From positions 1 through 33,610 of IMG/VR virus record IMGVR_UViG_3300010354_000308: DNA of 33,610 bases; one strand, given 5' to 3'. Below the pieces are notes generated by a model that saw only the letters and a program-made list of their open reading frames with translations, was not told the origin of the DNA and searched no databases. Positions 2,830-22,257 of the stretch are shown here, in pieces; position 1 is the stretch's first letter; each line of letters begins with the position of its first letter. This DNA is from a virus. The position numbers and the translations under genes are program-made.

Positions 2830-3078
2830 ATGGCTAATAGCCCAAATCCAGAAACTAACAAAGACTACATGATGTCTCAATGGGGTACAAAATATCTCAT
2901 CACTGACCCAAAATCAGACCAAGTTTTACGAGAAATTAATTTTGATCATTTGAATGACCTCAAAAGACAAAATAATTTGCATGAATCAATTCGTAATGAT
3001 GAAGATTATGATGATTGGGAGTATGGCACTGAACCAGTTTATGGTCAATCTTGGACAAATCCCAAAAAACTCGTATAG
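2830..3078 (+). CDS. Small acidic unknown protein, 82 aa
   Basis: The start at 2830 was chosen because GGAGG at 2820-2824 lies 5 nt upstream; an in-frame TTG at 2818 would bury that site in the coding region. The product begins MANSPNPETNKDYMMSQWGT and has a very acidic centre (RNDEDYDDWEYGTEP). It has no membrane segment or known domain. It is the first gene of the late unit that continues into gp25 and gp6, so a role in baseplate assembly or as a minor virion or regulatory protein is possible from position only. The strong Shine-Dalgarno, in a region where most genes lack one, and the hairpin over it suggest that its level is controlled at translation. Confidence 0.7.
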   Translation: MANSPNPETNKDYMMSQWGTKYLITDPKSDQVLREINFDHLNDLKRQNNLHESIRNDEDYDDWEYGTEPVYGQSWTNPKKLV

Positions 3079-3100
3079 ATATAGTAATTAAAATCTAAAA

Positions 3101-3517
3101 ATGGCACTTACTCCTCGATCAATAACTACTTCTAGGGGATTTAAAGATATTAGTTTGTCTTTTATTAGACATCCAGTGACTAATGATGTAGTGACACTCA
3201 GGAATGAAGATGCTATTAAAAGATCTGTAGTGAATTTAGTTAGAACTAATATAGGTGAACGATTTTTTAACCATTTACTTGGAACAAGTTTGGATGGATC
3301 TTTATTTGAAATTCAAACTCCTGAAGTTGCTTATTCCATACAATCTGAAATTGAAACTCTTTTGAGTAATTTTGAACCTAGAATCATAACGGAAGAGGTC
3401 ATAGTATCTTTTCCATTTGATTCTAATGAAATGTCTGTAATGATTCGTTATTCAATAGTTGGCCAATCGGCCCCGGCTCAAGAAATAGATTTCCTCTTAC
3501 AACCAACTAGAATATAA
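3101..3517 (+). CDS. 25: Baseplate wedge subunit gp25
   Basis: The 138-aa product belongs to the GPW/gp25 family of contractile-tail baseplates. Diagnostic parts are TNIGERFFNHLLGTSL (49-64), the family's helix-Gly-turn element with G-E-R, and the hallmark E-P-R triad at 92-94 followed by I-I. Length is close to T4 gp25 (132 aa). In T4 and related contraction machines, gp25 sits at the inner wedge, joins the gp6/gp7 core bundle and primes sheath polymerisation. Its TAA shares one base with the ATG of gp6 (TAATG), so the two are translationally coupled, which suits subunits of one complex. No Shine-Dalgarno is visible. T4 keeps gene 25 away from gene 6, so adjacency here follows the P2-like arrangement (W then J). 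Confidence 0.93.
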   Translation: MALTPRSITTSRGFKDISLSFIRHPVTNDVVTLRNEDAIKRSVVNLVRTNIGERFFNHLLGTSLDGSLFEIQTPEVAYSIQSEIETLLSNFEPRIITEEVIVSFPFDSNEMSVMIRYSIVGQSAPAQEIDFLLQPTRI

Positions 3518-5385
3518 TGGCATTTAATCAGTTCACTAATTTAGATTTTGATAGTCTTAAAATTCAGATCAAAAACTATCTTAGAACAAATTCAAATTTT
3601 ACTGATTTTGATTTTGAGGGTTCTAATTTTACAACCCTTATAGATCTTCTTGCGTACAATACATACATCACCGCCTACAACACTAACATGGCGGTTAATG
3701 AATGTTTTCTGGATAGTGCAACATTACGTGAAAATGTAGTTGCTCTTGCAAGGAATATCGGATATGTTCCTAGATCGAAAAGATCAGCAAAAGCATCGAT
3801 TACTTTTACTGTAGACTTATCAGATAATGATACAAGACTTGTAACTCTTAAAGCAGGTCCAGTAGTATTGGGTAGTGTTCAATCAGGCACTTACATCTAC
3901 TCAATACCAGAAGATTTTGTCACTACGAAAAACGATGACCTTAAAGCAACATTTGTTGATTTGCCAGTATATGAGGGAATTTATTTAACTAAAACTTTTA
4001 CAGTTGATTACTCTTTACCAAACCAAAGATATATTATTCCAAACCCAAATGTAGATACTACATCCATTAGGGTTAAGGTTACTTCATCTACAAGTGAAAT
4101 ATATGAAAATTATAGTAATGTTCTAAGTGTTAACTCAAGTTCTAAAGTATTTCTTATTCAGGAAATTGAAGATGAAAAATATGAAATCCTATTCGGAGAT
4201 AATATCTTAGGTAGAAAACCACCAGCTGGCAGTACGATTGAAGTAAGTTATATTGTAACCAATGGCAAAGAAGCAAATGGTGCAAGTAACTTTACTTTCG
4301 CTGGTGTTTTAAAAGATGATAGAGGACAGACAGTAACAAGTGGAATATCTTTTGTTACCACTACGCAATCTTCTGTTGATGGGGATGATATTGAGTCAGT
4401 AGAATCTATAAAATATTTGGCACCTAGAGTATACTCGGCTCAATTCCGTGCAGTTACTGCGAATGATTATAAAGCCGTTATCCCATCAATATATCCAAAT
4501 GTTCAATCAGTTACATCATATGGCGGAGAGGAATTAGATCCTCCAGAATATGGAAAAGTTTTTATATCAATTAAACCAAGAAATGGTAAATTCTTGTCTC
4601 AAATTACGAAGAACAATATTCTAAGACAACTTAAACAATATTCTATTGCAGGAATTCAACCAGTTTTAATTGACCTAAGTTATCTGTATGTCGAAGTTGA
4701 TTCTACAATTTATTATAATACTAACAGTGTTTCTGATCCAACTGCATTAAGAACTAAAGTTCTTAAAACACTCACTACATATTCGGAATCACCTGATGTT
4801 AATAGTTTCGGTGGAAGATTTAAATACAGTAAAGTTGTTGGTCTTATTGATGATAGTGATAAAGGCATCACTTCTAATATTACTAAAATAAAAATGAGGA
4901 GAGATCTTATTCCTTCCTTTAATGAATTTGCTACTTACGAACTTTGCTTTGGTAATAAATTCCACCAAAAAAGATCTGGATTTAGTATCAAATCATCTGG
5001 ATTTACGTATGCAAACGTGGAGGGTACGGTTTATGTTGGTGACATTCCAATAGATAGTAAAAAGGGCAGACTTATATTTTTTAAATTGGAAAATAATGTT
5101 CCTCTTATTGTTAAGACTAATGCAGGAACTGTTGATTATGAGAAAGGTGAATTGATCCTAGATGTTGTCAAAATAACTGGAACTTCTCTTGATAGTGGAG
5201 TTGTTCAAATTGAAGCAATTCCAGACTCTAATGATATTATTGCTTTGCGGGATTTGTATTTGCAAGTAGACATTCCAAATAGCAGAGTAAATACTCTACA
5301 GGACGTTGTATCTTCTGGAGAAAATACTTCCGCAACTCAATACATAACAACGTCAAGTTATCTAAACGGATCATATACGAGATAA
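3517..5385 (+). CDS. 6: Baseplate wedge subunit gp6 (baseplate J-like)
   Basis: The 622-aa protein is near the size of T4 gp6 (660 aa). Two family regions are clear. Near the N-terminus a helical segment (about 34-86) contains LIDLLAYNTYITAYNTNMAV, then ATLRENVVALARNIGYVP, the J-family pattern in which helices end in a G-Y-x-P turn. Around 300-350, APRVYSAQFRAVTANDYKAV matches the usual A-R-x(n)-A-V-T-x-x-D-Y motif. In T4, two gp6 chains pair with one gp7 to form the wedge core and the ring that irises open during contraction. It starts one base inside the end of gp25 and ends 4 nt before the 2977-aa gene, so gp25, gp6 and the gp7 candidate form one tight operon. Confidence 0.93.
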   Translation: MAFNQFTNLDFDSLKIQIKNYLRTNSNFTDFDFEGSNFTTLIDLLAYNTYITAYNTNMAVNECFLDSATLRENVVALARNIGYVPRSKRSAKASITFTVDLSDNDTRLVTLKAGPVVLGSVQSGTYIYSIPEDFVTTKNDDLKATFVDLPVYEGIYLTKTFTVDYSLPNQRYIIPNPNVDTTSIRVKVTSSTSEIYENYSNVLSVNSSSKVFLIQEIEDEKYEILFGDNILGRKPPAGSTIEVSYIVTNGKEANGASNFTFAGVLKDDRGQTVTSGISFVTTTQSSVDGDDIESVESIKYLAPRVYSAQFRAVTANDYKAVIPSIYPNVQSVTSYGGEELDPPEYGKVFISIKPRNGKFLSQITKNNILRQLKQYSIAGIQPVLIDLSYLYVEVDSTIYYNTNSVSDPTALRTKVLKTLTTYSESPDVNSFGGRFKYSKVVGLIDDSDKGITSNITKIKMRRDLIPSFNEFATYELCFGNKFHQKRSGFSIKSSGFTYANVEGTVYVGDIPIDSKKGRLIFFKLENNVPLIVKTNAGTVDYEKGELILDVVKITGTSLDSGVVQIEAIPDSNDIIALRDLYLQVDIPNSRVNTLQDVVSSGENTSATQYITTSSYLNGSYTR

Positions 5386-5389
5386 TAAC

Positions 5390-6110
5390 ATGTCAGCAGA
5401 AATAAAAAGAGTTAAAGTTGGACATTTAATTGAATCCCAAATTCCTTCGTTTTTAAATGAAGAGTCTCCACTATTCAGAGAATTTTTAGAGACTTATTAC
5501 ATCTCTCAGGAACACCAGGGTGGTGTTCTAGATTTGTCTAGTAATATTGACAAATATACTAAGGGCACATCATTTAACAGAGAAACTTTAATTCCATATG
5601 GTGTATTGCTGCAGTCCATTAATCCAGGTGATGGTACGATTGTAGTTAATTCTACAATTGGTTGGCCAGATCAGTATGGGTTATTGAAAATTGGTGATGA
5701 AATAATTACGTACACTAGAAAAACCGATAATACGTTTGAGGATTGTTATAGGGGATTTAGTGGTATTGATCAAATATCTCAAGATACTGATGTTGAGTTT
5801 TTGAGTTTTTCCCTGACAGATTCATCTAGTCATGAAGCCGGAAGTATTGTTTACAATTTAAGTAATTTATTCCTGCAAGAAATATTTGTAAAGTTTAAAA
5901 GTCAATTCTTACCTGGATTTGAAAATAGAAATTTTATCGAGGGCATCAACTTAGCCAATATCTTATCCAGAGCCAAAGATTTTTATAGCGCAAAAGGCAC
6001 AGATACTTCATATAAATTACTCTTCAAAATTCTGTACGGCGAAGAAATCCAAATTATTAAGCCACAGGAATATACTCTAACACCTTCAGATAATACTTAT
6101 TTTGTAACTA
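5390..6110 (+). other. P2 gpI-like (gp7/Tri2-like) wedge domain
   Basis: Residues 1-240 of the giant protein. A helix containing SPLFREFLETYY and a later helical block, FLQEIFVKFKSQFLPG followed by AKGTDTSYKLLFKILYGEE, match the pattern of tail protein I family proteins, in which an (S/A)-K-G-T-x-x-S/T-(F/Y) turn precedes an L-F-x-x-L-(Y/F)-G-E-E helix. An IGDEIITYT beta module is inserted between these parts (about 80-130). Confidence 0.6.
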
Positions 6111-9100
6111 AGAATGTTCTTGTAGAAAAGATTTTTGGAACTGGTGATCCAATCTTATCGAAGGGCAATTTCTTATATCAAAATATAACTGGAATTGGAA
6201 CTGTAAGTGCTTCAATTTATAACGTAGAATATAGACCTATTAAAAACAAAGATTTTTATGAGATATCTTTGGATTCCTCGTCATTTGATGGCCAATTTGT
6301 AGCGCCAGGAAAAACAAAAATTATTGAAACTACTCCACAAAACTCTACAGCTATTCTTGTTGATTCTACTTTAGGTTTTGAGAGATCAGGAAACCTTCTT
6401 ATTAAACCAACACCTACATCCGAATATATTACTATATCTTATCAAGATAAGACAATCAATCAATTTTTGGGAGTTTCTGGAGTCACAACTGAATTTTCTT
6501 TTGGTGCAGATATTACAGAAGATCGCTTAGCTTATGCTTATGTTGGTTTAGGTCAAACTTCAAAGGTAGATTTGAGGTTGGTAAATGTTATTGATACTGT
6601 TGAAACTACTCAAACTTCTAATATGAGGGTTGGGGATACTTTGGTATTGTCATCTTTTGGATTTGATTTAATTGATGATCCTAAATTTAATAGTTGGGTT
6701 TATAATGTCCCAACAAAACATATCATATCAAACGTACTTCAACAAAACCAAAATACGTTTAGAGTGCAACTTTATGATTCTATCGTATTCAGCATTGGAG
6801 AATCAGTTTATATTCTGAATTCCAATAATGAGAAAGTTAGAGGTGTGGTGAAGAGTATTGAGTATTCTTCTGGAGATACAATAAAAATTAAATCAAATAC
6901 TATTATCGTACAGATTTCTGGTACTCTTCCATCAAATCCATATCAAATTGAAAAAATAGTAGTTAAAGCGAATCATAACTCAAATTATTTTCCACAACTT
7001 TCCGACATTTCTGTGGGTATACAAAACTCATATTTGGACTTTGATGAAAAAAATATGTATGTTGCGACTAGTGGCATACCTAACTATCCTATTTTTGCGA
7101 CGGACAACAAAATTTTCATTAAAACTGGATCAAATCAAGATGGAATAGTGACACTTGTCAGTTCATTGGATCCATTAAACAATACTCCTTTTGATCATAA
7201 CTTAGTTACTGGTGATAAAATTTATTGGAATAATACCACTAACAGTGGATTGTCTACTGGCGTTTATTTTGTTACTTCTGTTAATAGAACCCAGTTTAGA
7301 TTATCTTATAGTAATACAGACGTTTTTGCTAAAAAATATGTCCCCATTAAGTCGGATCTTCCTGGACAATATATTTACAAATCTGGATTCGAAAACAAGA
7401 ATGCTTCCCATCAAAAGTTATTAGGAAAATTTCCATATACTAAAGAAGTTACATTATTTGATGATAAGTCAAAAAGAACTACAAGTAACAGACCAATAGG
7501 TCTCATGGCAAATGGAGTAGAGTTGTATCCATCTACTGTATTTGACGAAGAAATATTTTTTGGAAAAATAGAATCTATCAAAGTTACAAATCCAGGTAAA
7601 GATTATGATGTTATAAATGGTCCACCAATAGTCATCCAAGATGACCTTGGTACAGGCGCAAAAGCTTATGCAAACGTAGTTGGATCATTTAAAGAAATTA
7701 AATTAATAACACCTGGTATTGGTTATCAGGAAAAACCAAAAATAACTGTTTCTGGTGGTAATGGACGTGGAGCAGTACTGGAGTCCAATTTAGTTAGGGG
7801 TAGAATCATTGTATCATTTAAAGCTGATGGAAATTCAGTAAACGTTTCTTCTGATACTATTGATTTCCCAATCAAACATAATTTTGAATTAGGCGAAGAG
7901 ATAATTTATGATTCTGGTGGAAATACTGCTATAGGTGGACTGGTAGATGATTCCAGTTACTATGCTAGACCAGTAGATCCATATACCATTTCCTTACATA
8001 TCACACCAAAGGATGCTATTTCTGGTATCAATACAGTTAACATTGGATCTGTTAGTTTAGGATTTCATAACTTCAAAACTCTAAACAGTAAGAATACAAT
8101 TACAAAAATATATGTAAAAGATTCTGGAGAGGGATATTCTAATAAACAAATTAGAGTTCCTGCAAGACCAGTTAATGGGGATACTCAAACTGGAATTAGT
8201 ACAGCTGATAATTACTTTTTTGCCCCAGGTCATGGATTTTTGGATGGTGAAATCGTAGTCTATGATTATATTGGAACTTCTGCCAATGGATTATCTACAA
8301 CTACAGAATATTATGTACACAAGATAAACAACGATAAGTTTAAACTTTCTAATGCTGGAGTTGAGACTTCTAGAACGCCTGGCAACTTTACTTCAAAAAA
8401 ATATGCAAGAATCTCTGGAGTCGGGAATGGAACTCATATTATTAAATATCCACCTATTAGGATTAATGTAGAGACTCTTGCTGGCATCTCTTCTACGGGT
8501 ATCGTAAAACCTGAAATTGATCCAATAGTGCTTGGTTCAATTCAAAGTGTTTATATTGAAGATAATGGTATTGGATATGGATGCACAAACATTATCAATT
8601 ATCATAGAAGACCAAATGTTGGTATATCTACTGTAACATCAAAAGCTTTGATAAAACCAATTATTGTTAATGGTAGTATTCTTGATGTTCAAATTCTTGC
8701 TCGTGGATCTGGATATAGAAAAGATTCGGAAATTATAGTATACGATAACACGGAAAAGGGAGTTTTTGCTCAATTAATTCCTGTTATTGAAAATGGAAAA
8801 TTGCAATCTGTTAAAATTATAGATGGAGGCCTAAACTATAATCCAGCTACTACTGGATTAGAATTGAGAAATAGAGGAACAGATGCTAAATTTATTGCTG
8901 ATGTTACGAAATGGACTATTAATCAACAGATAAAAAGTTCAACTTTAATCAATAATGAAGATGCTTTATTGACAAAACCCAATGATAGGGGACTTCAATT
9001 TATATCCTTATATTTCCCCAATAAGTTAAGATTCCAGTTAAGTGATAATATTGATTCTGGTAATATAGAACTTACGACTAGTTCGAATCACTCGCCTATT

Positions 9101-12100
9101 CTTGGATGGGCCTATGATGGAAATCCAATTTATGGTCCATATGGATTTTCTGGTGCTACGAGTGGATCTATTCGAAGAATAACCAGTAGTTATGAATTAG
9201 ATATTACTACAAAACCTGGAATACGACCACCAGGATTTACCCCTGGATATTTCGTTGATGATTTTTATTACAATGCATCTGGGGACCTAGATGAGCATAA
9301 TGGTAGATATTGCATTACTCCCGAATTTCCAGATGGAATATATGCATATTTTTATACCGTAGATATTGATTCTAGTGGAGTGTCTGTTCCCAAATTCCCA
9401 TATGTTATGGGAAGGTATTTTAAAGATCAACCACTATTGGAAAATTTTGATTCAAACTTTAATCAAGATTTGGATATAACCCAATTTAATTTAATTAGAA
9501 ATGTTGGACCTTATTATTTGAATAGTTCCGGCAGTAACTATGATGTAATCGATAAAGTAACTGATGCAGCAAAACAGGAATTCAAAGTAACCAACATCAA
9601 AACATCTGGTATTGGATCCGTAACAGTATTTTCGCCAGGAAGTGGATACAGAGTTGGTGAAGTATTGCAGTTAGACAATACTGGAACTGATGGTACGGGT
9701 ACAAACGTTGTAATTTCTCACGTTAAAGGAAAGGCGATCGAGATTATTAATGTAGGTGTCTCTACAATTACAGATGTCAAAATGCAGGTGATTAATAATA
9801 GAATCATTGGAGTTACTACGGATCCACATGGATTCTCTGACGGAGAAACTGTAATCATCAGTGGACTTTCCACTTCTCGTCTTTCTATTATTGAAGGCCC
9901 ACGTAAACTTAGTGTTCTGAAAAGAAGTGTAGGACTAACTGAATATCTTCCAAATTCAAATACAACTGGAATATCAACTTACATCCCAGTTACTGATGTA
10001 CGAGGATTTTCCATTAATGATGTAATTGGCATTGGAACCGAAGTGATGAGAGTTACTTCGATTGATGAACAGTTTTCTAGATTGGGAGTAAACCGCCAAG
10101 TAGGAGTTTCATTAACACATACTAGTGGAACAAATAATGTTAAATTATTACCTACTAAGTTTGAGTATTATATTCCAAAGGGAATTAATTATGCTACATT
10201 TGAAAATAACGTCAGATTCTTTGATCCTCATTATACTATTGGCATTGGTTCTACTGGAACGAATTATAGAATAACTTCTACTGGAATTGGCACAACAACT
10301 ACCCAAACCATTACTAATAGATTTGTACCAGAAAAATCAATTTATGTAAAAAATCATCCATACTATACTGGACAGAAATTAATTTATAATCCAGGGATTG
10401 GTGGATCTAGCATTGTTTATTCGTCAACTGGATATGGATCTACCAGTGGAATTGGAACAGAGAGGCTTTCAGCTGGAACTGAAGTATATGCAATTAATTT
10501 GGGTGTAGATTATCTTGGTATTTCTACCGTTGGTTTCCCCACGGAAGGAAATGCAGTATATTTCTTTGGACAAGGTGAAGAAGTTGGATATGCACATTCA
10601 TTTACGTCTACATTCCCAGAGATAACAGCCGTTGCAGAGAATTATAGTGCATCAGTAAAAACAACAAATAACCACGGACTGTCTACTGGTGATCTTGTAT
10701 CTCTTACAAGTCTACCAAAACAACTTGAAAGAGTGGCTCTTAGATATGATCCTGTTATTTTAAAAATAACGACCGAACGAGTATCATTCTCTAGTACTAC
10801 TTTCTCTAATGATTTGACAAGCTTTAAAATTGATACTCAGAAATTTAATAGTGGAGATAAAGTAGTTTACTATGCAAATGGAAATACAATTGGTGGATTG
10901 GTTGATAATGAAATTTATTATGTATTGAAGGATGCCCCAGATAGAATTAAATTGTGTAGATATCTTAGCGATGTTAAAGAATCTAATGCAATTGTCATGT
11001 CTTCTGTTTCATTGGGCACTTACTATCTTGCAAAAATAAATCCACCAATTACTGTTAATAGGGGAAATGTATTAGAATTTGATTTGTCCGATCAAAGTCT
11101 ATCTAATATGCGATTGGATTTTTATGAGGATATTAATTTTAGGAATAATCTAGACATTTCTGGTACTTCAGAAAGTGGTTTCTCCATTTTACGTGAAGGT
11201 GTTGTTGGTACTGTTGGTGCTAGAGTCATAATTTCCACGGTAACGGAGTTTCCTAAAAAGTCATTTTATAATTTAACTCCAATTACTCCAACGGATGTTA
11301 GAAAAAATCAAATCACTAGTGATGATAGTATTCCAGGAAGAAATTCTATAACAATTAATGATAGTATTTTGAGTGGAAATCACGCAATTGTTGTTGCTGA
11401 TTCCAAAAATTTCTCTTTCAATTTGATTAAAAAACCAGCATTCTATGAAAATTTCATAACCAAGTCGGGACTATCGACTGTATATTACGAAACAGATTCA
11501 CCATTTGCAGTTGGCCCTGTATCTAGGACAAAGATTAATTTCCCAGGTAAAGGTTATTCTAAACTACCAAAGGTTATTGGATTTGAATCTATTTCAGGTA
11601 AAGATGCAGTTATTAAAATCAATAGTGGGAGAATTGGTCAAATTGATTCTATGGAAAGGGTAAAAGATGGATTTGATTATCCTACTGACCCAACCCTACT
11701 TCCATTTTTAAGTGTTCCGACAATATGCGATATAAGTGGAATATCTAGAATATCTAGAGTCGATATTACGGATGGTGGAAGGAATTATCAGCAACCACCC
11801 AGACTAGTTGTTTTGGGAAATACTAAAGTAAAACTAGATGCTGTTGTAAATGGAGGTTCTGTAGTCGATGTAATAGTTAAAGAAAACGCATATGAATTTA
11901 CAGAACCGTTACCTGTTATTCCAGTTACTAATTCTAATGGATATGATATTGATACGATCACTCATTCAAGTAATCTAGTAACTTTAGAATTACTTTTAGA
12001 CCCACAATTTAATAAACCAGTTACTGCTGGATATGCAACATCTGAAGTTAAATTCCCATTTGCTATTGGAGATAGAATTTATATCGAAGGGTGTAGATTG

Positions 12101-14323
12101 AAGCCAGATTCTGTAAATTTGGGTGAATTGAACTTTAATTCTATTGATTATGGATATAGATTCTTCGATGTAGTTGGCATCAATACATTAAATTATACCG
12201 TTACTTATAGTATGGTTGGGATTGCCACTGGAACTTTAGGTGCATATGACGATGACTTCACCTTAGGTTCTGTCATCAATGAAAATGACATGGCTAAATT
12301 TAGTATGAAAATTATTGACGATTCTTCTTATGTTTCTGGTGAAAAAGTTATATCTAAAAAGTTTACTGCTAATGTAACTGAAAATGGTTATGACAGTGAC
12401 ATAAATCAACTTAGATTAACTAATAGTGTAGGTGAATTAAGAGTTGGTGATGTATTGTACGGGGAACAATCAAAATTAGTCGGTAAAGTCGAAGCAGTTA
12501 ATAAATTTAATATTAGAACAAGATTGGGAATTACAAGAGATAAACTTGGGGATATTGATAAGTCAAAAGGAATATTGAATGAGTATCTTCAAAGAATATC
12601 TGATAATTTTTATTATCAGAAGTTTTCTTACTCTATTAATAGTTCTATACCATATGATTCTTGGAAAGAATCGGTTAGGTCAATCATTCACCCATCTGGA
12701 TTTAGAGAATTTTCAGATTTAAAAATATTTGGTGATCCACAAAAAGATGCAAAAACATTTAATTATGTAAATGTTGGGTTGGCTAAGTCAACTAATATGA
12801 AGGTTAAGGCAATTTCTCAAGATGTGTCTTTAATTATTAATATTGATAATGAAGTTTACATGGGCACCAAATCAAACTTTGCTATGATAACTGAGGATGA
12901 TCCTCTTCCAGACAATTCTATCCAAAGAATTTTCTTCCCTGAGGGTAGACCACTTAAGGGTTATATTTTAAATAAAACTAACAAAGTTTTGAAACTAGAT
13001 GATATAAGTAATGGATTTAATGGAAGATATGATAGAGCAGGAAACCTAATTGGAAATACTCAGTTTAAATTAACAACAAAGAATGGAGTTCCCGTTTTTA
13101 GATCCACATTCAATTCAGCGTCATCATCTGTCGTTGATTTAGTTAATAATGTAATTAGCATTCCTAATCATAATTTCCAAAGTGGACAAGAATTGGTCTA
13201 TGATACTCAAGGAGGTACAGTTCTCGGTATTGCAACTACATCTCACACAACAGGCACAAGAGATATTGTCATGTCTGTTACTGGTGCCGGCGGCAGTGCA
13301 TTATTTGAAAATGGATACAATTTCTCTGTTGTTGGTCCAGTTGTTGGTATATCCACTACTGCAAGTCCAATAGTTGGAGCAAAAGTATTTGGATTTGGTA
13401 CTGGAATCCCTGGAATATCTACTTATGGAACTGGAGCTAAGTTTGAGGTTCTCATCACCTATAGTGAATCTACAGGAGTTCCAATTTCTACCAGTATTTT
13501 ACTGAGAGAGGGTGGATATGGATATCAAGTTGGGGAAACTGTAAGTATAGCTGGTACTTTTATGGGGGGAACTTCCCCAACTAATGATCTATCTTTTGTT
13601 GTAACAAAAGTAGCAAGTACTAGAGCTGGAATACAGACGGTGTACTCAAATGTACCTTCTACTAATGATGGTTCTGGGTCTGGAGCAGTGTTTAATGTAG
13701 AAAGAGATGTCAATACTGATATATCCAAAGTAACGGTCGTTACAGGAGGTTCTGGTTATGCTGGAACTAATACAATTTCTATTGCAGGAACTTACATTGG
13801 AGGATCGACTCCTACCGACAATTTGTATTTAACTCCAACCGAATTGGGAAGTAATGTAATGCCTTCTACAGTCTATGTTCAAAAAATAGACGATGTTAAA
13901 TTTAGACTATCTGGTCTCACTACCTCATTGGCATTTGATATTGTTGGTCTTGGTACTGGCACCCATCTACTTAGATATGCCAATCCAACTCAAAATTCTT
14001 TAATTTTGGTTGATGGTATAATTCAAAGTCCAATTCGTAATAAAAAACTATCAGTGAGTGTTACAGCTCCTGTTGGAACTGAAGATCAACAAATAACAGT
14101 TGGCGCAGGTATAAATTCTCTTGGAACAGATGATTTGATCAAGATTAATGACGAATACCTAAAAGTAAAATTCATCGGTAAGGGATCATTTGTTATTTCC
14201 AGAACTGCTGATGTCGAAACTACAGTGGACCAGAATTTTTATTATGATAAGAATAGAGCTAATTCTACGGTCACCTCTGTGGACAGTACGTTAGTTACTT
14301 CTGATGATAGACCTCCATATTAA
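5390..14323 (+). CDS. Giant baseplate protein, 2977 aa, with gpI-like N-terminus (gp7/Tri2 candidate)
   Basis: The frame is unbroken for 8.9 kb. The N-terminus (1-240) carries IPSFLNEESPLFREFLETYY (18-37) and, near 183-221, NILSRAKDFYSAKGTDTSYK then LLFKILYGEE and a T-P-S-D-N turn. This resembles the P2 gpI / tail protein I family, the counterpart of gp7 in the wedge triplex. The rest is beta-rich: repeated GxGY segments, at least six H-x-(L/F)-x-x-G-(D/E) repeats (His 603, 830, 948, 1480, 1762 and 2594), and a YHYH-like domain at about 1210-1345. No signal, membrane or coiled-coil segment is obvious. It directly follows gp6, where T4 has gene 7 (1032 aa). Inference: it acts as gp7 at its N-terminus and extends outward as a large arm or fibre. 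The virion-protein role is very likely; the gp7 equivalence is moderately likely. Confidence 0.88.
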   Translation: MSAEIKRVKVGHLIESQIPSFLNEESPLFREFLETYYISQEHQGGVLDLSSNIDKYTKGTSFNRETLIPYGVLLQSINPGDGTIVVNSTIGWPDQYGLLKIGDEIITYTRKTDNTFEDCYRGFSGIDQISQDTDVEFLSFSLTDSSSHEAGSIVYNLSNLFLQEIFVKFKSQFLPGFENRNFIEGINLANILSRAKDFYSAKGTDTSYKLLFKILYGEEIQIIKPQEYTLTPSDNTYFVTKNVLVEKIFGTGDPILSKGNFLYQNITGIGTVSASIYNVEYRPIKNKDFYEISLDSSSFDGQFVAPGKTKIIETTPQNSTAILVDSTLGFERSGNLLIKPTPTSEYITISYQDKTINQFLGVSGVTTEFSFGADITEDRLAYAYVGLGQTSKVDLRLVNVIDTVETTQTSNMRVGDTLVLSSFGFDLIDDPKFNSWVYNVPTKHIISNVLQQNQNTFRVQLYDSIVFSIGESVYILNSNNEKVRGVVKSIEYSSGDTIKIKSNTIIVQISGTLPSNPYQIEKIVVKANHNSNYFPQLSDISVGIQNSYLDFDEKNMYVATSGIPNYPIFATDNKIFIKTGSNQDGIVTLVSSLDPLNNTPFDHNLVTGDKIYWNNTTNSGLSTGVYFVTSVNRTQFRLSYSNTDVFAKKYVPIKSDLPGQYIYKSGFENKNASHQKLLGKFPYTKEVTLFDDKSKRTTSNRPIGLMANGVELYPSTVFDEEIFFGKIESIKVTNPGKDYDVINGPPIVIQDDLGTGAKAYANVVGSFKEIKLITPGIGYQEKPKITVSGGNGRGAVLESNLVRGRIIVSFKADGNSVNVSSDTIDFPIKHNFELGEEIIYDSGGNTAIGGLVDDSSYYARPVDPYTISLHITPKDAISGINTVNIGSVSLGFHNFKTLNSKNTITKIYVKDSGEGYSNKQIRVPARPVNGDTQTGISTADNYFFAPGHGFLDGEIVVYDYIGTSANGLSTTTEYYVHKINNDKFKLSNAGVETSRTPGNFTSKKYARISGVGNGTHIIKYPPIRINVETLAGISSTGIVKPEIDPIVLGSIQSVYIEDNGIGYGCTNIINYHRRPNVGISTVTSKALIKPIIVNGSILDVQILARGSGYRKDSEIIVYDNTEKGVFAQLIPVIENGKLQSVKIIDGGLNYNPATTGLELRNRGTDAKFIADVTKWTINQQIKSSTLINNEDALLTKPNDRGLQFISLYFPNKLRFQLSDNIDSGNIELTTSSNHSPILGWAYDGNPIYGPYGFSGATSGSIRRITSSYELDITTKPGIRPPGFTPGYFVDDFYYNASGDLDEHNGRYCITPEFPDGIYAYFYTVDIDSSGVSVPKFPYVMGRYFKDQPLLENFDSNFNQDLDITQFNLIRNVGPYYLNSSGSNYDVIDKVTDAAKQEFKVTNIKTSGIGSVTVFSPGSGYRVGEVLQLDNTGTDGTGTNVVISHVKGKAIEIINVGVSTITDVKMQVINNRIIGVTTDPHGFSDGETVIISGLSTSRLSIIEGPRKLSVLKRSVGLTEYLPNSNTTGISTYIPVTDVRGFSINDVIGIGTEVMRVTSIDEQFSRLGVNRQVGVSLTHTSGTNNVKLLPTKFEYYIPKGINYATFENNVRFFDPHYTIGIGSTGTNYRITSTGIGTTTTQTITNRFVPEKSIYVKNHPYYTGQKLIYNPGIGGSSIVYSSTGYGSTSGIGTERLSAGTEVYAINLGVDYLGISTVGFPTEGNAVYFFGQGEEVGYAHSFTSTFPEITAVAENYSASVKTTNNHGLSTGDLVSLTSLPKQLERVALRYDPVILKITTERVSFSSTTFSNDLTSFKIDTQKFNSGDKVVYYANGNTIGGLVDNEIYYVLKDAPDRIKLCRYLSDVKESNAIVMSSVSLGTYYLAKINPPITVNRGNVLEFDLSDQSLSNMRLDFYEDINFRNNLDISGTSESGFSILREGVVGTVGARVIISTVTEFPKKSFYNLTPITPTDVRKNQITSDDSIPGRNSITINDSILSGNHAIVVADSKNFSFNLIKKPAFYENFITKSGLSTVYYETDSPFAVGPVSRTKINFPGKGYSKLPKVIGFESISGKDAVIKINSGRIGQIDSMERVKDGFDYPTDPTLLPFLSVPTICDISGISRISRVDITDGGRNYQQPPRLVVLGNTKVKLDAVVNGGSVVDVIVKENAYEFTEPLPVIPVTNSNGYDIDTITHSSNLVTLELLLDPQFNKPVTAGYATSEVKFPFAIGDRIYIEGCRLKPDSVNLGELNFNSIDYGYRFFDVVGINTLNYTVTYSMVGIATGTLGAYDDDFTLGSVINENDMAKFSMKIIDDSSYVSGEKVISKKFTANVTENGYDSDINQLRLTNSVGELRVGDVLYGEQSKLVGKVEAVNKFNIRTRLGITRDKLGDIDKSKGILNEYLQRISDNFYYQKFSYSINSSIPYDSWKESVRSIIHPSGFREFSDLKIFGDPQKDAKTFNYVNVGLAKSTNMKVKAISQDVSLIINIDNEVYMGTKSNFAMITEDDPLPDNSIQRIFFPEGRPLKGYILNKTNKVLKLDDISNGFNGRYDRAGNLIGNTQFKLTTKNGVPVFRSTFNSASSSVVDLVNNVISIPNHNFQSGQELVYDTQGGTVLGIATTSHTTGTRDIVMSVTGAGGSALFENGYNFSVVGPVVGISTTASPIVGAKVFGFGTGIPGISTYGTGAKFEVLITYSESTGVPISTSILLREGGYGYQVGETVSIAGTFMGGTSPTNDLSFVVTKVASTRAGIQTVYSNVPSTNDGSGSGAVFNVERDVNTDISKVTVVTGGSGYAGTNTISIAGTYIGGSTPTDNLYLTPTELGSNVMPSTVYVQKIDDVKFRLSGLTTSLAFDIVGLGTGTHLLRYANPTQNSLILVDGIIQSPIRNKKLSVSVTAPVGTEDQQITVGAGINSLGTDDLIKINDEYLKVKFIGKGSFVISRTADVETTVDQNFYYDKNRANSTVTSVDSTLVTSDDRPPY
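7190..13330 (+). repeat. Degenerate H-x-L/F-x-x-G-D/E protein repeats
   Basis: Six clear copies occur in the 2977-aa protein: HNLVTGDKIYW (603), HNFELGEEIIYD (830), HGFLDGEIVVYD (948), HGFSDGETVIIS (1480), HGLSTGDLVSL (1762) and HNFQSGQELVYD (2594). A seventh lacks the His (KFNSGDKVVYY, 1818). Several continue with a GGL turn and a YYV strand. The DNA has diverged, so these are old protein-level repeats rather than DNA direct repeats. Confidence 0.7.
9002..9424 (+). other. YHYH-like domain inside the giant protein
   Basis: Residues about 1205-1345. GWAYDGNPIYGPYG (1239-1252), DLDEHNGR (1299-1306) and TPEFPDGIYAYFYT (1310-1323) follow in the order typical of the YHYH domain. The eponymous Y-H-Y-H is replaced by Y-A-Y-F at 1318-1321. 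The domain's biochemical role is unknown; in a baseplate protein it may be a binding or structural insert. Confidence 0.65.
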
Positions 14324-14353: not shown

Positions 14354-15370
14354 ATGGCTAAACAGGGTATTAGTACGGGAACAACTCCCAATGATGGGAC
14401 TGGAGATACATTACTTGCAGCTACGTTAAAAATTAATTCAAATTTTAACGAAGTATATAACGTGTTTGGTGATGGCAGTAATCTTGTAAGTTTTGTTTCA
14501 TACGCAACCACTGCGGGGTATTCTACTGCATGTGGGGTTGCTTCTACATCAACTTATGCTCAGGTTTCTAGATTTGTAACTACAGATATTAGTATTAATT
14601 CTACAGGTGTATCTACCTTTAGTTATACTGATACTGGTGGAATAATTATTGAGAAATTTGGTGTACCTGCAAACACTCCGTTTCAAGTTGGATTTGCTGG
14701 TACTATGCTTAGGGTTGAAAAATCAAAAGTTGGAGTGGGAACATCAGCTCCAACTTCTCAATTTGAAGTTGTTTCGTATGATCCAGAAATACCTGTATTG
14801 CAAGTAACTCCTAAGAGTAATGGACACGCAATACGTGTTTCTCAAAATCCAGTAGTAAATTCTACTAGTTTTGTAGTTACAAAAGATGGTAAGGTTGGAA
14901 TAGCTTCGACTGCACCACAATCACATTTAACGGTTACGGGAGATGTTTCTGTAACTGGAATTTCTACATTCACGGGAACTACACATTTAAATGGGTCTAT
15001 TACTGAAAAAGTAATTGGTAATTTTTCTAGTTCTTTAACTGCTATTGGTGGAACCTTAACCGTAGACGTATCTCAAGGAACGGTAATACTTGGTGGATTG
15101 ACAACCTCGGTAACAACTTGGGCATTTACAAATGTAAGTACATTGAATGGTAAAGCAACCACCGTTACGATTATTAATGATGCAGGTGCATCTGCAACAT
15201 ATGGTGACCTTTGTAGAGTAAATGGATCTCTTATTTCTGGTGGAATTCGTTGGGTTGGGGGCAATCCACCGCCATCAACAAATCAGGAAGATATATTAAC
15301 TTTCAGTATCATCCGAGATGGTTTTGGCGAAACACGGGTTTATTGCAATAGTTCTTTAAATATTAGTTGA
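14354..15370 (+). CDS. Tail-fibre-like protein, 338 aa
   Basis: The N-terminus (GISTGTTPNDGTGDTLLAAT, then LKINSNFNEVYNVFG) is the common phage fibre or baseplate attachment motif P-N-D-G-T-G-D followed by a K-I-N-x-N-F helix. The middle holds trimeric-fibre repeats: KVGVGTSAPTSQFEV near 125 and KVGIASTAPQSHLTV near 184, then GISTFTG. The C-terminus has a GGIRWVGGNPPP segment and ends in RVYCNSSLNIS, a terminal domain that recurs in cyanophage fibre proteins. There is no catalytic motif or membrane segment. Family knowledge suggests a homotrimeric short fibre or spike attached to the baseplate. It sits between the gp7 candidate and the propeller protein and has its own late promoter. The fibre label is secure; receptor binding is inferred. 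Confidence 0.82.
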   Translation: MAKQGISTGTTPNDGTGDTLLAATLKINSNFNEVYNVFGDGSNLVSFVSYATTAGYSTACGVASTSTYAQVSRFVTTDISINSTGVSTFSYTDTGGIIIEKFGVPANTPFQVGFAGTMLRVEKSKVGVGTSAPTSQFEVVSYDPEIPVLQVTPKSNGHAIRVSQNPVVNSTSFVVTKDGKVGIASTAPQSHLTVTGDVSVTGISTFTGTTHLNGSITEKVIGNFSSSLTAIGGTLTVDVSQGTVILGGLTTSVTTWAFTNVSTLNGKATTVTIINDAGASATYGDLCRVNGSLISGGIRWVGGNPPPSTNQEDILTFSIIRDGFGETRVYCNSSLNIS

Positions 15371-15381
15371 GGTAACTATAG

Positions 15382-18300
15382 ATGCCTACTAGAGTTACTC
15401 CTGGATCGGGTGCCGTATTACGACCCTTTTTTGATTCTGATTACGGTGTTGAGAAGATAGAAGTAGTTTTTGGTGGTTCTGGATATGCCAAAACCGATCC
15501 ACCAAAAATATCAATACAAGGAACTCAAACTCCCATAACTGAAGGAGTATTTTACCCCGTTATTAGTGGAGTCGGCACAATAAGGGAAATTGTTATATTT
15601 AATCCTGGTGCTGGATACTATCCTGTATTTTCCACAACTACTGGCGGACAGGTATTCGTAGAAAGAGGCGTATTTGGTACTTCCCCTGGGGTACATACTG
15701 CGGGCGTAAGTAGTGTTTTTTCGGGTGACTATAATATTATTCAGGACAATATCTATTTTTCTTCTCCACCATACGGAAAAACTGGTTTGGTTGGATTGGA
15801 AACTGGGTCCACATTTACTGGAAGAATATTTTCAAGAAAATTAGATCCAAACGAAACTAAAGACAAAAATTTAATTTTTGATGATATTTCTCTCGAATTT
15901 ACTGGTGTTGCTGGAACCGAATTCAAATTAACTGAAAATCTAAGTAACGTTACTGCAGCATATAATAGTGTAAATGCTGGATCGGATATTAACAATAATC
16001 CATTTATACTTATCAATAATGTAAGTCAAACTCCAGGACTTGATTTTACCGTTGTAGATTCGGATGAGAATAAGATAAATTTTTTAAGTGGGGTTCCACG
16101 AGCGGGAAGAATAACAAAAGTTGGATTGACCACTGGATCTGGATATTACTCTTTACTTCCCGCAGCTGGAGTTGTTGGTGTTGGGACTACTGGTACAATT
16201 ACCAAAGTAAAACTAACTGGAGTTGGTCAGGGATATAGAACTCCACCAAAGTGTACTATTCGCAGCTCTCAGGGGTCTGGCGGACTAGTTACTGCATATT
16301 TGGGTACACTGGATCCAAACACGTATAACATCTCTACGGCGGTCTATAATCGATATGTTGGCATAGTTACGTTTACCACGTCAACATCCCATGGATATTC
16401 AACTGGAGAAAGAGTTAGAGTAGTTGGAGTTGGATTTACTTTTCCTGCTATCTCAACGGCAAGAAATATAAACACATTTGAATATGATCCTGTTACTGGT
16501 ATAGCATCAATATCTGTTTTTGGTGGACATTATATTGGAACCGATACAAATTCATCCAGACATATTTTAGTCACTCAGGTGCAGGTAACTAATGGTATAA
16601 CAACGTTTACTTTTAGGGAAGATGGGTATCCAATTATATCGGTTGGATCTACCAATAATGTTCAAATTAATTGTGGAGTAGGAACCACCGCATTAACATA
16701 TGTTGGTGGTGGATTAGTTCAGGCTGGAATAGATACTGGAATTCTTGAGTCTGTTAATAGAGTTGGATTTGATATACTTGGAGTTACTACTAATACCTTC
16801 GAAGTCTTTGTTGGACTTAGTACCTTTAATTTATCATATACAAGTGGAGGAGTAGTTCAAAAAAATCAAGTCGGACTAGTAACGGGATTGTCAATTATAG
16901 ATCCTGGTCAAAATTATTATGTAAGTCACAACGTTGCATATGTTGATTACGAACCAAGTTCTGGTGTTACTACTATAACTGGTTATGGAAAGCAATTAGG
17001 TATTACTACAACAATTGCAAACGTTTACTATACACCAACGACAGGAATAGCAACCATCATGAGTACAAACACTCATGGGTTGCAAATAAACGATGTCATT
17101 AGGTTATCTGGTATTGGATTCAGTACTCCATTAGGTGATACTACATTTCCATATAACTCCAATGAATTTTATGCTGTAAAATCTATAGTTAGCACACTTG
17201 AATTTACTGTAGACATTGGAATTTCGACAGTCGGAATTCATACACACCAACAATTAACAGGAACTTGGACTCTATATGAAGGTCATGGACTAAAAACTGA
17301 TGATTTTGCAATAGTTTCTGGTATTGCAATGACTACAAACTATTGGCCTCCAGTTTCTATTCAAAATGTAACTTATGACAATATTACTGGTATAGCAACG
17401 ATTACAACAGATTCTGATCATTACTTAGAACAAAGGGACTTTGTTCTTCTGAGTGGAATTGCTATGACTTGTGGTTATGATAATGGTGTTGGTGTAGTTA
17501 CTTTCCCGAGAACTACTGATCCCGCATATAATGGGGTATTTGTCACTAATGTTGGAACATCAACTGTATTCTCCGTCAACGTTGGTCCATCTACAATTAC
17601 ACATTATTCATTTACCTCTGGTGGAACTGTACAACACGCAGTTCGTTATCCAACTCCATATGCAGCTGCTTATGATTTAATTTCTGAACAATATGGTGAT
17701 GGATTTTATGTTTTGGAAGTTTACGATGCTGCAAAATTCAGAGTTCAGAGTGGATTACTCACATCTAGATACATTTATAATAGGGCAGGTACAATAGAAA
17801 AACCAGTATCTTTAGATATAGCTTCTCCCAATCCTTATTTTAATTTACCTCTACAATATCCAACTGGAATTGTTGGATTTGGAACAACGGGAATAGGTGT
17901 TCAATCTAAATGTGATTTGTCAATCAATATCAGTGGTGAGATTGGAGTATTTGATGTTACGGAAGAAGGAGTTGGGTATAAGGTAGGAGATAGACTTAGA
18001 GTTTCTGGAATATCCACGGATGTTAGAGTTGGTATTTTAACGGAATTCGAACTGACTGTTTTAGAAGTAGCAAATGATAAGTTTTTTGGATTCTATCCTG
18101 GACAATTTATATTATTTGATGATATTTCGAAGTTCTTCAATGGAGTCAGGAAGAAATTTACACTTTCTGTTACTACGGGTGGAGTTACATCTATATTAAG
18201 TCTAAAAACAGAACCTGGAACTGATTTGGACATAACAAATAATATTTTTATATACATTAATGATATTCTACAAACTCCTGGAGATTCTTACATTTTCCGA

Positions 18301-20661: not shown

Positions 20662-22257
20662 ATGCCTGCCATTATATCAGATCAATTTAGAATTCTTAAC
20701 GCAGAAACTTTTGTTCAAAGTTTTGTTGGTGTAGGATCCACAGTAAACAAATATTATGCATTTATTGGTTTACCTGGATCTACAAATACAAAGGCTGGTG
20801 GAACACCAGATTGGAATACTAATACTCCTTCTCCATTGGATGGATTTAAAGAGGAGAATGAAATTAAAGAATCTGTTATTGCTATGAAGAAAATAACAGA
20901 TAGAGATGTCAGGAGATTAGTACGAAAAGTGCAATGGACAGCAGGACAAACTTATGAAATGTATCGTCATGATTATAACATATATAATTTGACTCCAATA
21001 ACTAGTCAAGCTAGTTTGTACGAATCAAATTATTATGTAATTAATGAAGATCTTAGGGTGTATATATGTCTTCAAAATGGATCAGATCCAGAGAACCCAA
21101 AGGGTAGACCTTCGTATGACCAACCCACATTTATTGACCTTGAACCAAGGGCAGCTGGTACTAGTGGCGATGGTTACGTTTGGAAATATCTTTACACGAT
21201 TAAACCATCGGAAGTAGTTAAATTTGATTCTATCGAATATATTCCCGTCCCAGAAAATTGGGGATTTGAAGGAGAATCAATTTCAACGAGAGGAAATGCT
21301 ATTGATGGAAAAATTGAAGTAATTGTCGTTAATAACAGAGGATCTAGTTATCAGCCAATTTCTACTTCATTCTCAAACGTTCCCATTTTGGGGGATGGTA
21401 CTGGAGGTAAAGCTACTATTACTATCGATTCTTTTGGTAAAGTTTCTGAAGTTTTTGTTACAGATGGGGGATCTGGTTATACTCACGGAAGTATTCAATT
21501 TTATCCTGGAGCTCCAGGAAGTGAACCAGGTGGTTCTTTAGAAAATTTAACAAATACTGGAATTGGAACGACATCCAGAGCTAGATTTGATGTTATTATT
21601 CCACCAAAAGGCGGACATGGTGCAGATGTTTATAGGGAACTTGGAGCTTATAGAGTTTTACTCTATACCCGATTCGAAACTTTGGAAACAAACCCAGATG
21701 TTATCGAAGGTAACGATTTTGCCAGGATTGGAGTTATAAAAAATCCTACAGTCTTTGGCAGTAGATATGAACTTCTAGATGCCTCTATTGTCAGTGGACT
21801 TAAATCATTAAAATTAGTTGGACTTGCAACTCAGACTACGTATGCAGTTGATTCAACAATTACACAAACCGTTGGTTTAGGATCTACTGCCATTGGATTG
21901 GTTGCGGCTTGGAATCCAACTACGGGTGTTCTGAAGTACTATCAACCAATGGGATTGGCATCTAGTGAAAGTGGTTATAAGATTATCCCATTTACTTCAA
22001 ATCCTTCCGCTGGTTATGGATTAACGATTAATTGTTCTTCTATAACAGGACCAGTTTTACAAATTAATAATGATTTTACAGGTGTTTCTACATCAATAAA
22101 TAACACGACATATCAATTAGGAGTCAATTTTGTTGCTGGAATTGCTTCTGCTGAGTACAGCACAAAGTCTGGAGAAATTATCTACATAGATAATAGGATT
22201 GCTATTCCTAGGTCCTCAAGTCAAAAAGAAGATATTAAGATTGTACTGGAGTTCTAA
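20662..22257 (+). CDS. 8: Baseplate wedge subunit gp8, enlarged form (531 aa)
   Basis: Three anchors match T4 gp8 in order: GDGYVWKYLYTIKP (170-183; T4 has GDGYVWEYLFEI), GNDFARIGVIKNP (350-362; T4 has a GFRQISIITNP segment) and the C-terminal GEIIYIDNRIAIP ending KIVLEF (T4 GEMIYMENR ending ILFTF). In T4, gp8 is a dimer that joins the wedge periphery to gp7 and gp10. T4 gp8 is 334 aa; most of the excess here is a beta insertion at about 212-320 made of GSGY-type repeats (NNRGSSYQ, then TDGGSGYTHG), the same module found in the giant neighbours. It has its own late promoter and ends 6 nt before the DUF4815 protein. Confidence 0.9.
   Translation: MPAIISDQFRILNAETFVQSFVGVGSTVNKYYAFIGLPGSTNTKAGGTPDWNTNTPSPLDGFKEENEIKESVIAMKKITDRDVRRLVRKVQWTAGQTYEMYRHDYNIYNLTPITSQASLYESNYYVINEDLRVYICLQNGSDPENPKGRPSYDQPTFIDLEPRAAGTSGDGYVWKYLYTIKPSEVVKFDSIEYIPVPENWGFEGESISTRGNAIDGKIEVIVVNNRGSSYQPISTSFSNVPILGDGTGGKATITIDSFGKVSEVFVTDGGSGYTHGSIQFYPGAPGSEPGGSLENLTNTGIGTTSRARFDVIIPPKGGHGADVYRELGAYRVLLYTRFETLETNPDVIEGNDFARIGVIKNPTVFGSRYELLDASIVSGLKSLKLVGLATQTTYAVDSTITQTVGLGSTAIGLVAAWNPTTGVLKYYQPMGLASSESGYKIIPFTSNPSAGYGLTINCSSITGPVLQINNDFTGVSTSINNTTYQLGVNFVAGIASAEYSTKSGEIIYIDNRIAIPRSSSQKEDIKIVLEF

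What the first reader, a model, noticed from the sequence alone, without database searches (positions are those of the whole stretch)
5390..6110. P2 gpI/Tri2-like domain at the head of a 2977-aa protein
After gp25 and gp6, the third partner of the conserved wedge triplex should be gp7/gpI. The first 240 residues carry gpI-like elements (SPLFREFLETYY; AKGTDTSYKLLFKILYGEE). The triplex subunit would thus be covalently extended by more than 2700 residues, nearly three times T4 gp7. This gives a concrete route to assign the missing gp7 in this phage.
Basis: partly seen in the sequence, partly recalled or inferred. Interest (0 to 1): 0.6.

Follow-up and report, generated by a model that had tools for sequence, protein, structure and literature searches.

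The report
Phage wedge protein gp7, split open
This giant marine-phage protein is the baseplate wedge protein gp7, thought missing in these phages; its conserved core is cut in two by about 2,000 inserted residues instead of being a small domain with a long tail.

Summary
The ORF (5390-14323, 2977 aa) and quoted motifs are real. The gp7 core lies in two blocks: aa 9-305 (KGT helix motif, = T4 gp7 729-759) and aa 2310-2450 (WKESVRSIIHPSGF, = T4 775-905). They nearly abut in T4 and in short relatives (586-631 aa) but lie ~2,000 aa apart here: mainly an insertion inside the core, plus a ~530-aa tail. In 17 of 17 T4-type stretches one ORF carries block 1 and only that ORF carries block 2; a T4 gp7 profile found no second gp7 in complete relatives. 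P2 gpI/Tri2 itself matches only as a 22-30-residue motif; family profiles fail. The name gp7 is already in GenBank (S-SSM7), but a 2020 paper calls gp7 absent from pelagi- and cyanomyophages, replaced by VrlC; both are present side by side. In some relatives the next giant protein is fused to gp7, suggesting contact. The inserted arm carries GxGY repeats and a YHYH domain; its role in host attack is inferred.

The parts
3101..3517 (+). gp25, sheath initiator, wedge partner
   Evidence: PF04965 4.5e-11; phrog_261 2.4e-44
3517..5385 (+). gp6, wedge partner expected as two copies per gp7
   Evidence: PF21379 5.9e-16, PF21387 2.6e-7, PF21871 2.8e-6; phrog_219 4e-202
5390..14323 (+). gp7, 2977 aa, whole ORF
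   Evidence: phrog_2885 baseplate wedge subunit over aa 6-2545; 57% identical over full length to S-SSM7 'gp7'
5411..5569 (+). gp7 block 1a, aa 8-60: N-terminal helical pair (core-bundle part by analogy with T4 643-689 and XM1 gp17 1-48)
   Evidence: S-SSM7 relative aa 8-36 matches phiM19 gp7 10-38, 48%; phiM19 6-122 aligns to T4 gp7 640-758; helices in the model but low confidence
5585..5866 (+). aa 66-159: small beta domain inserted between the helices of block 1; not in the T4 alignment
   Evidence: well predicted; resembles small beta domains in phage GP4, JBD30 and Chi tail proteins, Z 8.2-9.2 over 73-74 residues
5858..6055 (+). gp7 block 1b, aa 157-222: helix pair with the KGTDTSYKLLFKILYGEE motif, = T4 gp7 ~725-760
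6056..6304 (+). aa 223-305: beta region after the motif, still alignable to short gp7s
   Evidence: Melnitz-2 hhalign 2.4e-6, OC 0.0047; b1 HMM reaches it in 7757, Melnitz-2 and HTVC008M
6305..12316 (+). insertion, aa ~306-2309 (about 2,000 aa), between the two halves of the gp7 core
   Evidence: 20 of 25 slices of the ORF lack T4 gp7 similarity; the five that have it lie at the two blocks; gap 1930-2272 aa in 91 of 91 loci whose ORF holds both blocks
7568..8893 (+). six ~40-aa GxGY beta repeats in the insertion, aa 727-1168; further copies at 1408-1434, 2048-2063, 2121-2145 and, in the tail, 2778-2800
   Evidence: iterated repeat HMM
9074..9367 (+). YHYH domain in the insertion, aa 1229-1326
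   Evidence: PF14240 4e-25
12317..12538 (+). gp7 domain-V-like fold, aa 2310-2383, = T4 gp7 775-854
   Evidence: VIA-align top three of 995 chains are T4-type gp7s, Z 6.3/6.2/5.5, 61-72 residues
12524..12739 (+). gp7 block 2, aa 2379-2450: YYQKFSYSI...WKESVRSIIHPSGFREFSDL, = T4 gp7 ~860-890
12740..14320 (+). C-terminal tail, aa 2451-2977; the side onto which the next giant protein is fused in relatives
   Evidence: S-SCSM2R: window gp7 2549-2933 = 3062-3447, then big2 60-305 = 3418-3666
14354..15370 (+). 338-aa protein with T4 gp9/gp10-type N-terminal domain
   Evidence: PF07880 2.9e-8; hhalign to T4 gp10 1-43, 96.7%, 3.6e-10
15382..20631 (+). 'big2', 1749 aa: downstream giant protein, fused to gp7 in S-SCSM2R, S-CAM9, Bellamy and S-T4; carries no gp7 block
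20662..22257 (+). gp8, wedge partner
   Evidence: PF09215 2.6e-9; phrog_438 8.8e-158
22264..29766 (+). VrlC orthologue (DUF4815), a separate protein that carries no gp7 block
   Evidence: PF16075 3.9e-60; 36% over 1865 residues to P-HM2 VrlC

Best explanation
The 2977-aa protein is the phage's only gp7. Shown by sequence: its N-terminal block (aa 9-305) and a second block (aa 2310-2450) are the two halves of the T4 gp7 core, in the same order; in T4 they nearly abut, here ~2,000 residues are inserted between them. Inferred: the halves fold back together with two gp6 chains and gp25 into the usual (gp6)2-gp7 wedge unit, and the inserted stretch loops out as an arm of beta repeats with a YHYH domain, one per wedge, six per baseplate. 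Inferred: the arm does by covalent insertion what docking loops of gp7-type adaptors do elsewhere (XM1 gp17 loops hold tail spikes, TssG loops hold TssK trimers): it carries the host-facing parts. The C-terminal tail probably holds the next giant protein, which some relatives have fused to it.
For: Block 1: T4-type gp7 is top PDB sequence hit, hhalign 4e-10, and the top two Foldseek hits of the N-terminal model (E 3.3e-4 and 9.7e-4). Block 2: hhalign to five T4-type gp7s 9.2e-6, with the short OC gp7 added 2.4e-8. Slice control: only the five of 25 slices over these blocks match. Independent fold test: the model of aa 2210-2554 has T4-type gp7 as top three of 995 chains, at T4 775-854, where sequence predicts. 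HMMs built only from window and marine viral-contig sequences hit the same single ORF for both blocks in 17 of 17 T4-type stretches (the window by construction) and in no other of 665 ORFs, no shuffled or reversed ORF, and not in P2. Reverse: a T4-only HMM of residues 855-900 finds 8 of 16 non-T4 gp7 ORFs, all at block 2, and none of 648 other ORFs above 3 bits. OC gp7 aligns to RB49 gp7 643-889 across both blocks in one stretch. A 6619-aa relative with both blocks, S-SZBM1_208, was detected in purified virions with 71 peptides (PMC9146016, passages; blocks).
Against: Block 2 against T4 directly is weak when single models are used: the marine HMM scores T4 at E 0.023, leB 1.1, and misses RB49, Aswh_1 and 6E35-1b; the T4 HMM gives the window only E 0.78 and misses 8 of 16 relatives; profile A3 finds no gp7 in the PDB at E<=10 and phmmer finds none. 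The models are poor (mean pLDDT 64.6 and 58.8; the block 2 motif itself is under 40), Foldseek TM 0.13 with rmsd 28-30 A, VIA Z 5.5-6.3 is below the level that stands alone. The placing of domain V is uncertain: aa 224-310 also aligns weakly to the same region of short gp7s. No complex was modelled; the arm's function is not tested.
Confidence: 0.82

Rival explanations
1. One reading: a complete P2 gpI/Tri2-like domain in the first 240 residues, with everything after it a C-terminal extension.
For: The 22- and 30-residue gpI segment around KGT ranks first of 2956 and 2948 positions in the window ORF, and first in T4 gp7 and OC.
Against: gp7 core similarity resumes at aa 2310-2450. PF09684 has no match; hhalign to the gpI family finds none; a 40-column segment ranks 18th.
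Confidence: 0.1
2. gp7 is truly absent and VrlC (here 22264-29766) replaces it, as proposed for pelagimyophages and cyanomyophages (PMC7029224); the 2977-aa protein is an unrelated structural protein with chance motifs.
For: Stated in that paper (passage); T4 gp7 residues 1-640, domain V and domain VI are not recognised by sequence HMMs in the window ORF.
Against: Both gp7 blocks are in one ORF next to gp6 in HTVC008M and P-HM2, which also carry VrlC as a separate gene. VrlC shows no gp7 block.
Confidence: 0.03
3. The two blocks are paralogous small domains, each able to act as a wedge adaptor, and not two halves of one core.
For: aa 224-310 and aa 2310-2383 both show some likeness to the T4 domain V region.
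Against: The blocks match different, adjoining parts of T4 gp7 (727-822 and 812-891), the two regions do not match each other, and each block occurs once per ORF in 154 of 154 contig ORFs for block 1 and 91 of 91 for block 2.
Confidence: 0.05

Closest known systems
T4 gp7 (baseplate wedge protein, 1032 aa)
   Same: Position after gp6; KG-helix motif and W...HPxGF block in the same order; fold match at domain V.
   Different: T4 has a 640-aa N-terminal part and domain VI that were not found here; T4 has ~105 aa between the blocks, the window ~2,080.
Short gp7s: Ochrobactrum phage OC (631 aa), Desulfovibrio phage 7757 (586 aa), Methylophilales phage Melnitz-2 (896 aa), Pelagibacter phage HTVC008M (1016 aa), Sinorhizobium phage phiM19 (1007 aa)
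   Same: Both blocks, same order, gene after gp6 where annotation is available.
   Different: Spacing of block 1 end to block 2 start is 64, 84, 318, 467 and 751 aa (7757, OC, Melnitz-2, HTVC008M, phiM19).
Synechococcus phage S-SSM7 gp7 (SSSM7_101, 3007 aa) and other cyanomyophage gp7s up to 6619 aa
   Same: 57% identical over the whole length; same split architecture.
   Different: Named gp7 in GenBank, but the split was not described in the papers seen; SSSM7_103 is also called gp7 there and carries neither block.
P2 gpI / R-pyocin Tri2 (PA0619)
   Same: Third partner of the conserved wedge triplex by the literature; short KGT segment alike.
   Different: No Pfam or profile match found here.
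Vibrio phage XM1 gp17 and T6SS TssG
   Same: gp7-type adaptors whose loops dock spikes or TssK trimers (PMC10457771, PMC6300606, passages).
   Different: Their loops are tens of residues; likeness of function is inference.

Membership tests
T4-type gp7 | gene directly after gp25 and gp6 | tested here: met
T4-type gp7 | KG-motif helix pair (T4 ~725-760) | tested here: met
   phmmer 7.7e-6, hhalign 4e-10, T4-only HMM finds 16 of 16 non-T4 gp7 ORFs, the weakest at E 0.13
T4-type gp7 | W...HPxGF block (T4 ~860-890) after the KG motif in the same chain | tested here: met
   hhalign 9.2e-6; slices; 17 of 17 stretches; direct single-model scores to T4 weak
T4-type gp7 | domain V between the two | tested here: inconclusive
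   fold match Z 6.3/6.2/5.5, but no sequence match to a domain V HMM and Pfam PF21427 not reported for the ORF
T4-type gp7 | N-terminal domains (T4 1-640) | tested here: not met
   HMM of T4 1-640 matches only T4 among 665 ORFs, apart from one chance row at E 0.29; also missing in the short gp7s, so it does not define the wider family
T4-type gp7 | domain VI (T4 920-1012) | tested here: not met
   no gp7 ORF but T4's matched; also missing in the short gp7s
T4-type gp7 | (gp6)2-gp7 core bundle and trifurcation in the assembled wedge | not testable with these tools
   no complex prediction offered
Pfam PF23786 Baseplate_wedge | score above curated cut-off (27 bits) | tested here: not met
   window 24.7 bits, E 1.9e-5, profile 179-220 only; OC 45.1, Melnitz-2 40.0, phiM19 32.8 bits pass
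P2 gpI / Tri2 (PF09684) | PF09684 match | tested here: not met
   none in the window nor in 8 T4-type records; P2 found at 8.1e-58
P2 gpI / Tri2 (PF09684) | KGT helix motif | tested here: met
   rank 1 of 2956 and of 2948 for 22 and 30 columns, rank 18 of 2938 for 40; segment chosen by eye
P2 gpI / Tri2 (PF09684) | fold match to solved Tri2 | tested here: inconclusive
   not among the listed matches of a low-confidence model
VrlC / DUF4815 | homology of the 2977-aa ORF to VrlC | tested here: not met
   VrlC is the separate ORF 22264-29766; no block hit in it and no PF16075 hit in the 2977-aa ORF

The most novel reading that the evidence does not exclude
In marine T4-type phages the wedge triplex subunit itself has become the host-attack organ: one loop of gp7 between the two halves of its core has grown by stages (about 65 aa in a Desulfovibrio phage to about 2,700 aa in S-SZBM1) into a mosaic arm with GxGY repeats and a YHYH domain, and in several lineages the neighbouring giant protein has been fused to its other end. 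The receptor-binding or wall-degrading parts would then be built into the wedge chain, six copies per virion, and changed by recombination inside one gene.
Probability: 0.35. Interest if true: 0.8.

Novelty: new variant of a known kind. Interest (0 to 1): 0.6.

Why it matters
gp7 is a fixed part of the wedge unit shared by contractile tails, yet it was filed with the non-cyanophage core in the 2010 comparison of 16 cyanophages (PMC3037559, passages) and reported absent and replaced by VrlC in 2020 (PMC7029224, passages). Finding both core blocks in one ORF across cyano-, pelagi-, methylo- and rhizobial phages closes that gap, gives two short markers by which annotators can tell gp7 from the neighbouring giants, and shows that a structural core can be opened by a 2,000-residue insertion. 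It makes part of the host-recognition apparatus of abundant ocean phages testable: predict or image (gp6)2-gp7 with only the two blocks, then ask where the arm points.

Tried and rejected
Direct gpI/Tri2 test: PF09684 in the window and in 8 T4-type records, hhalign of four gp7 profiles and 13 ORF slices to a seven-member gpI family, and the idea that block 2 equals the second half of gpI (rank 2324 to 2768 in the window) all failed; only the KGT segment ranked first, and that segment was chosen by eye.

Block 2 by single-model searches: phmmer and profile A3 against PDB sequences gave no gp7; reported as evidence against.

The idea that big2 (15382-20631) is gp10: its N-terminus matched no T4 protein among gp8-gp12; the gp9/gp10-type N-terminus is in the 338-aa protein. 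The idea that domain V is duplicated on both sides of the insertion: aa 222-330 and aa 2304-2394 do not match each other; left open.

In the fold searches no Tri2, P2 gpI or XM1 gp17 chain was recognised in the rows shown; with such models this shows nothing. The P2 gpI scan of viral contigs returned only near-identical copies (99-100%), not used further.

Papers: nine searches. None of the listings and passages seen describes a split gp7 core. PMC9004378, PMC7824862 and PMC3004832 were seen as passages only; Yap 2016 (PMC4791028) is not held, and Taylor 2016 was not read.

Full report
WHAT WAS CHECKED. The window is a 33,610-base virus record with the tail order gp25, gp6, 2977-aa ORF, 338-aa gp9/gp10-type protein, 1749-aa giant ('big2'), gp8, DUF4815 giant. 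The nearest annotated relatives are Synechococcus myophages: S-SSM7 57% and Sf-FS3 56% identical over the whole protein.

BLOCK 1. phmmer of the first 307 aa against PDB sequences finds T4-type gp7, aa 193-222 = T4 729-758, E 4.4e-5; with 640 aa, 7.7e-6. A 61-sequence profile gives 8.5e-7 and 3.4e-6 for two T4-type gp7s, next hit 0.056. hhalign to five T4-type gp7s: 4e-10. The AlphaFold2 model of aa 1-345 is poor (pLDDT 64.6, pTM 0.43), yet the top two of all Foldseek PDB matches are 9f4a_A0 (1031 residues) and 5iv5_BJ (1004), E 3.3e-4 and 9.7e-4; that these chains are gp7 follows from their entries and length (gp7 is 1032 aa in both entries). TM is 0.13 and rmsd 28-30 A, so this is a local match. 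aa 66-159 is an extra beta domain seen in other phage tail proteins.

BLOCK 2. Reading T4 gp7 beside the ORF showed a second likeness, YYQKFSYSINSSIPYDSWKESVRSIIHPSGF against YYVMKIKSNLPSSRWKSDVIRFVHPVGF. Tests: hhalign of a 41-sequence alignment of aa 2210-2554 to five T4-type gp7s gives E 9.2e-6, T4 811-905, and 2.4e-8 when the short OC gp7 is added. As a control the ORF was cut into 25 overlapping slices: slices 1-345 and 116-460 (E about 1e-9, T4 727-821) and 2186-2530, 2301-2645, 2416-2760 (1e-5 to 2e-4, T4 783-889) match, the other 20 have E 0.035 or worse. The model of aa 2210-2554 (pLDDT 58.8; aa 2219-2374 good, the motif itself under 40) has as its top three of 995 aligned chains 9f4a, 5iv5 and 5hx2, all T4-type gp7, model aa 2310-2383 = gp7 775-854, Z 6.3, 6.2, 5.5, that is Pfam's gp7 domain V, 766-861. 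Plain Foldseek ranks 5iv5 only seventh, E 0.47.

SPECIFICITY. HMMs from window and viral-contig sequences alone were run over 665 ORFs of 100 aa or more in 18 stretches. Block 1 hits 17 ORFs, one in each of the 17 T4-type stretches; block 2 hits the same 17 and no other; P2, shuffled and reversed ORFs give nothing. The window's own hits are by construction, and T4's block 2 is weak (E 0.023). In five T4-type gp7s block 2 is found at E<=10 in two (T4, leB) and missed in three. Reverse: an HMM of T4-type residues 855-900 alone lists, above 3 bits, T4 and 8 of the 16 other gp7 ORFs, each at block 2 (E 0.004-0.78), and none of the 648 other ORFs. OC gp7 and RB49 gp7 align in one stretch across both blocks, 7-273 to 643-889, E 3e-8, which links block 2 here (38% to OC, 1.3e-6) to T4-type gp7.

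A GRADED INSERTION. End of block 1 to start of block 2 (HMM limits): phage 7757 64 aa; OC 84; T4 about 105; Melnitz-2 318; HTVC008M 467; phiM19 751; S-PM2 1509; window 2080; S-T4 2094; S-CAM9 2096; Bellamy 2151; P-HM2 2281; S-RIM2 2642; S-SZBM1 about 2718. In IMG/VR contigs 154 loci (best 80 of 260 matches; best 80 of at least 590, six of them already held; at least four contigs occur twice) hold block 1; 91 hold block 2 in the same ORF, 61 ORFs are cut by the stretch end, 2 end near a contig end; the gap is 1930-2272, median 2087. In the phage collection block 1 is found in 475 of 50,697 records and block 2 in 474, 475 places. Between the window and P-HM2, S-PM2 or S-RIM2 the blocks are 96-100% covered by BLAST matches but the insertion only 22-30%: the insertion is replaced while the core stays.

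NO OTHER gp7. A T4-type gp7 profile run over whole records finds one place in S-SSM7, Sf-FS3, S-SCSM2R, phiM19, OC and T4, inside the gp7 ORF, and none in S-CAM9 and Melnitz-2 (6 of 8); of seven more, one place each in S-RIM2, Bellamy and 7757, none in four. PF09684 is found in P2 only, 1 of 9.

gpI/Tri2. P2 gpI and pyocin Tri2 are one family (1.6e-39). The literature links them to gp7 through TssG and the wedge scheme (PMC6300606, passages). Here only the KGT segment ranks first; profiles do not match.

THE NEIGHBOUR. big2 has no gp7 block, though its S-SSM7 counterpart SSSM7_103 is also called gp7 in GenBank. In S-SCSM2R window gp7 2549-2933 equals 3062-3447 and big2 60-305 equals 3418-3666, with the rest to the end: a fusion that drops about 60 residues of big2 and 40 of gp7. 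S-CAM9, Bellamy and S-T4 show the same with big2 from aa 81-93; P-HM2 only one short piece. In these five the next gene is 410-534 aa, gp8 by annotation or place (checked by alignment in S-T4 only). The gp9/gp10-type gene next to gp7 in S-SSM7 and Sf-FS3 has no full-length match in these five. Fusion partners usually touch, so big2 probably binds the gp7 tail.

VIRION. S-SZBM1_208 (6619 aa, beside the two genes annotated as wedge subunits in the gp6 and gp25 positions) has both blocks and was found in purified particles with 71 peptides, 13.5% coverage (PMC9146016, passages).

AGAINST PRINT. PMC7029224 (passages) says T4 gp7 is absent from pelagimyophages and cyanomyophages and appears to be substituted by VrlC. 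HTVC008M and P-HM2 carry gp7 with both blocks and VrlC as separate genes. PMC3037559 (passages) lists gp7 in the non-cyanophage core.

MECHANISM. Shown: identity, two blocks, order, single copy. Inferred: the halves reunite in the (gp6)2-gp7 unit; the insertion (nine of the ORF's ten GxGY repeat units, and a YHYH domain, PF14240 4e-25) stands out as an arm. gp7-type loops carry spikes in XM1 (PMC10457771, passages) and TssK in T6SS (PMC6300606, passages). YHYH is predicted elsewhere to be a tail-associated metal hydrolase (PMC7824862, passages). I give identity and split architecture 0.82 and the host-attack arm 0.35.

Noticed in passing
L168 (S-SSM7, GU071098) 25084-34089: SSSM7_103 is annotated gp7 baseplate wedge initiator but has neither gp7 block; it is the homologue of window 15382-20631.
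   Followed up: yes
window 20662-22257: gp8 is 531 aa against 334 in T4; a stretch (aa 217-324) matches phrog_701 and holds a GxGY repeat piece, so gp8 seems to carry an insertion of the same repeat kind.
   Followed up: no
L160 6926-8809 (phage OC): phiOC_p051 is labelled T4-like gp7 but lies in the gp6 position; p050 is the gp7.
   Followed up: partly
PHROGs phrog_4406, phrog_701, phrog_3465: Families matched by gp7 are filed under head and packaging or as head closure Hc2; for these members the wedge is the likelier place.
   Followed up: no
L258 (S-RIM2) gp7 aa 1-650 and L261 (S-SZBM1) gp7 aa 1-660: These two giant gp7s have about 500 extra residues before block 1, with GxGY repeats in S-RIM2; no match to the T4 N-terminal part.
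   Followed up: partly
window 1036-1794: ORF of phrog_1574 with weak glycosyltransferase likeness, upstream of gp25; a gene annotated glycosyltransferase lies upstream of gp25 in Sf-FS3 and S-SCSM2R too.
   Followed up: no
window 30007-30339: 110-aa protein resembling LtfC beta-sandwich and L-shaped tail fibre assembly families (PF23926 sub-threshold, phrog_3304 2.7e-27).
   Followed up: no
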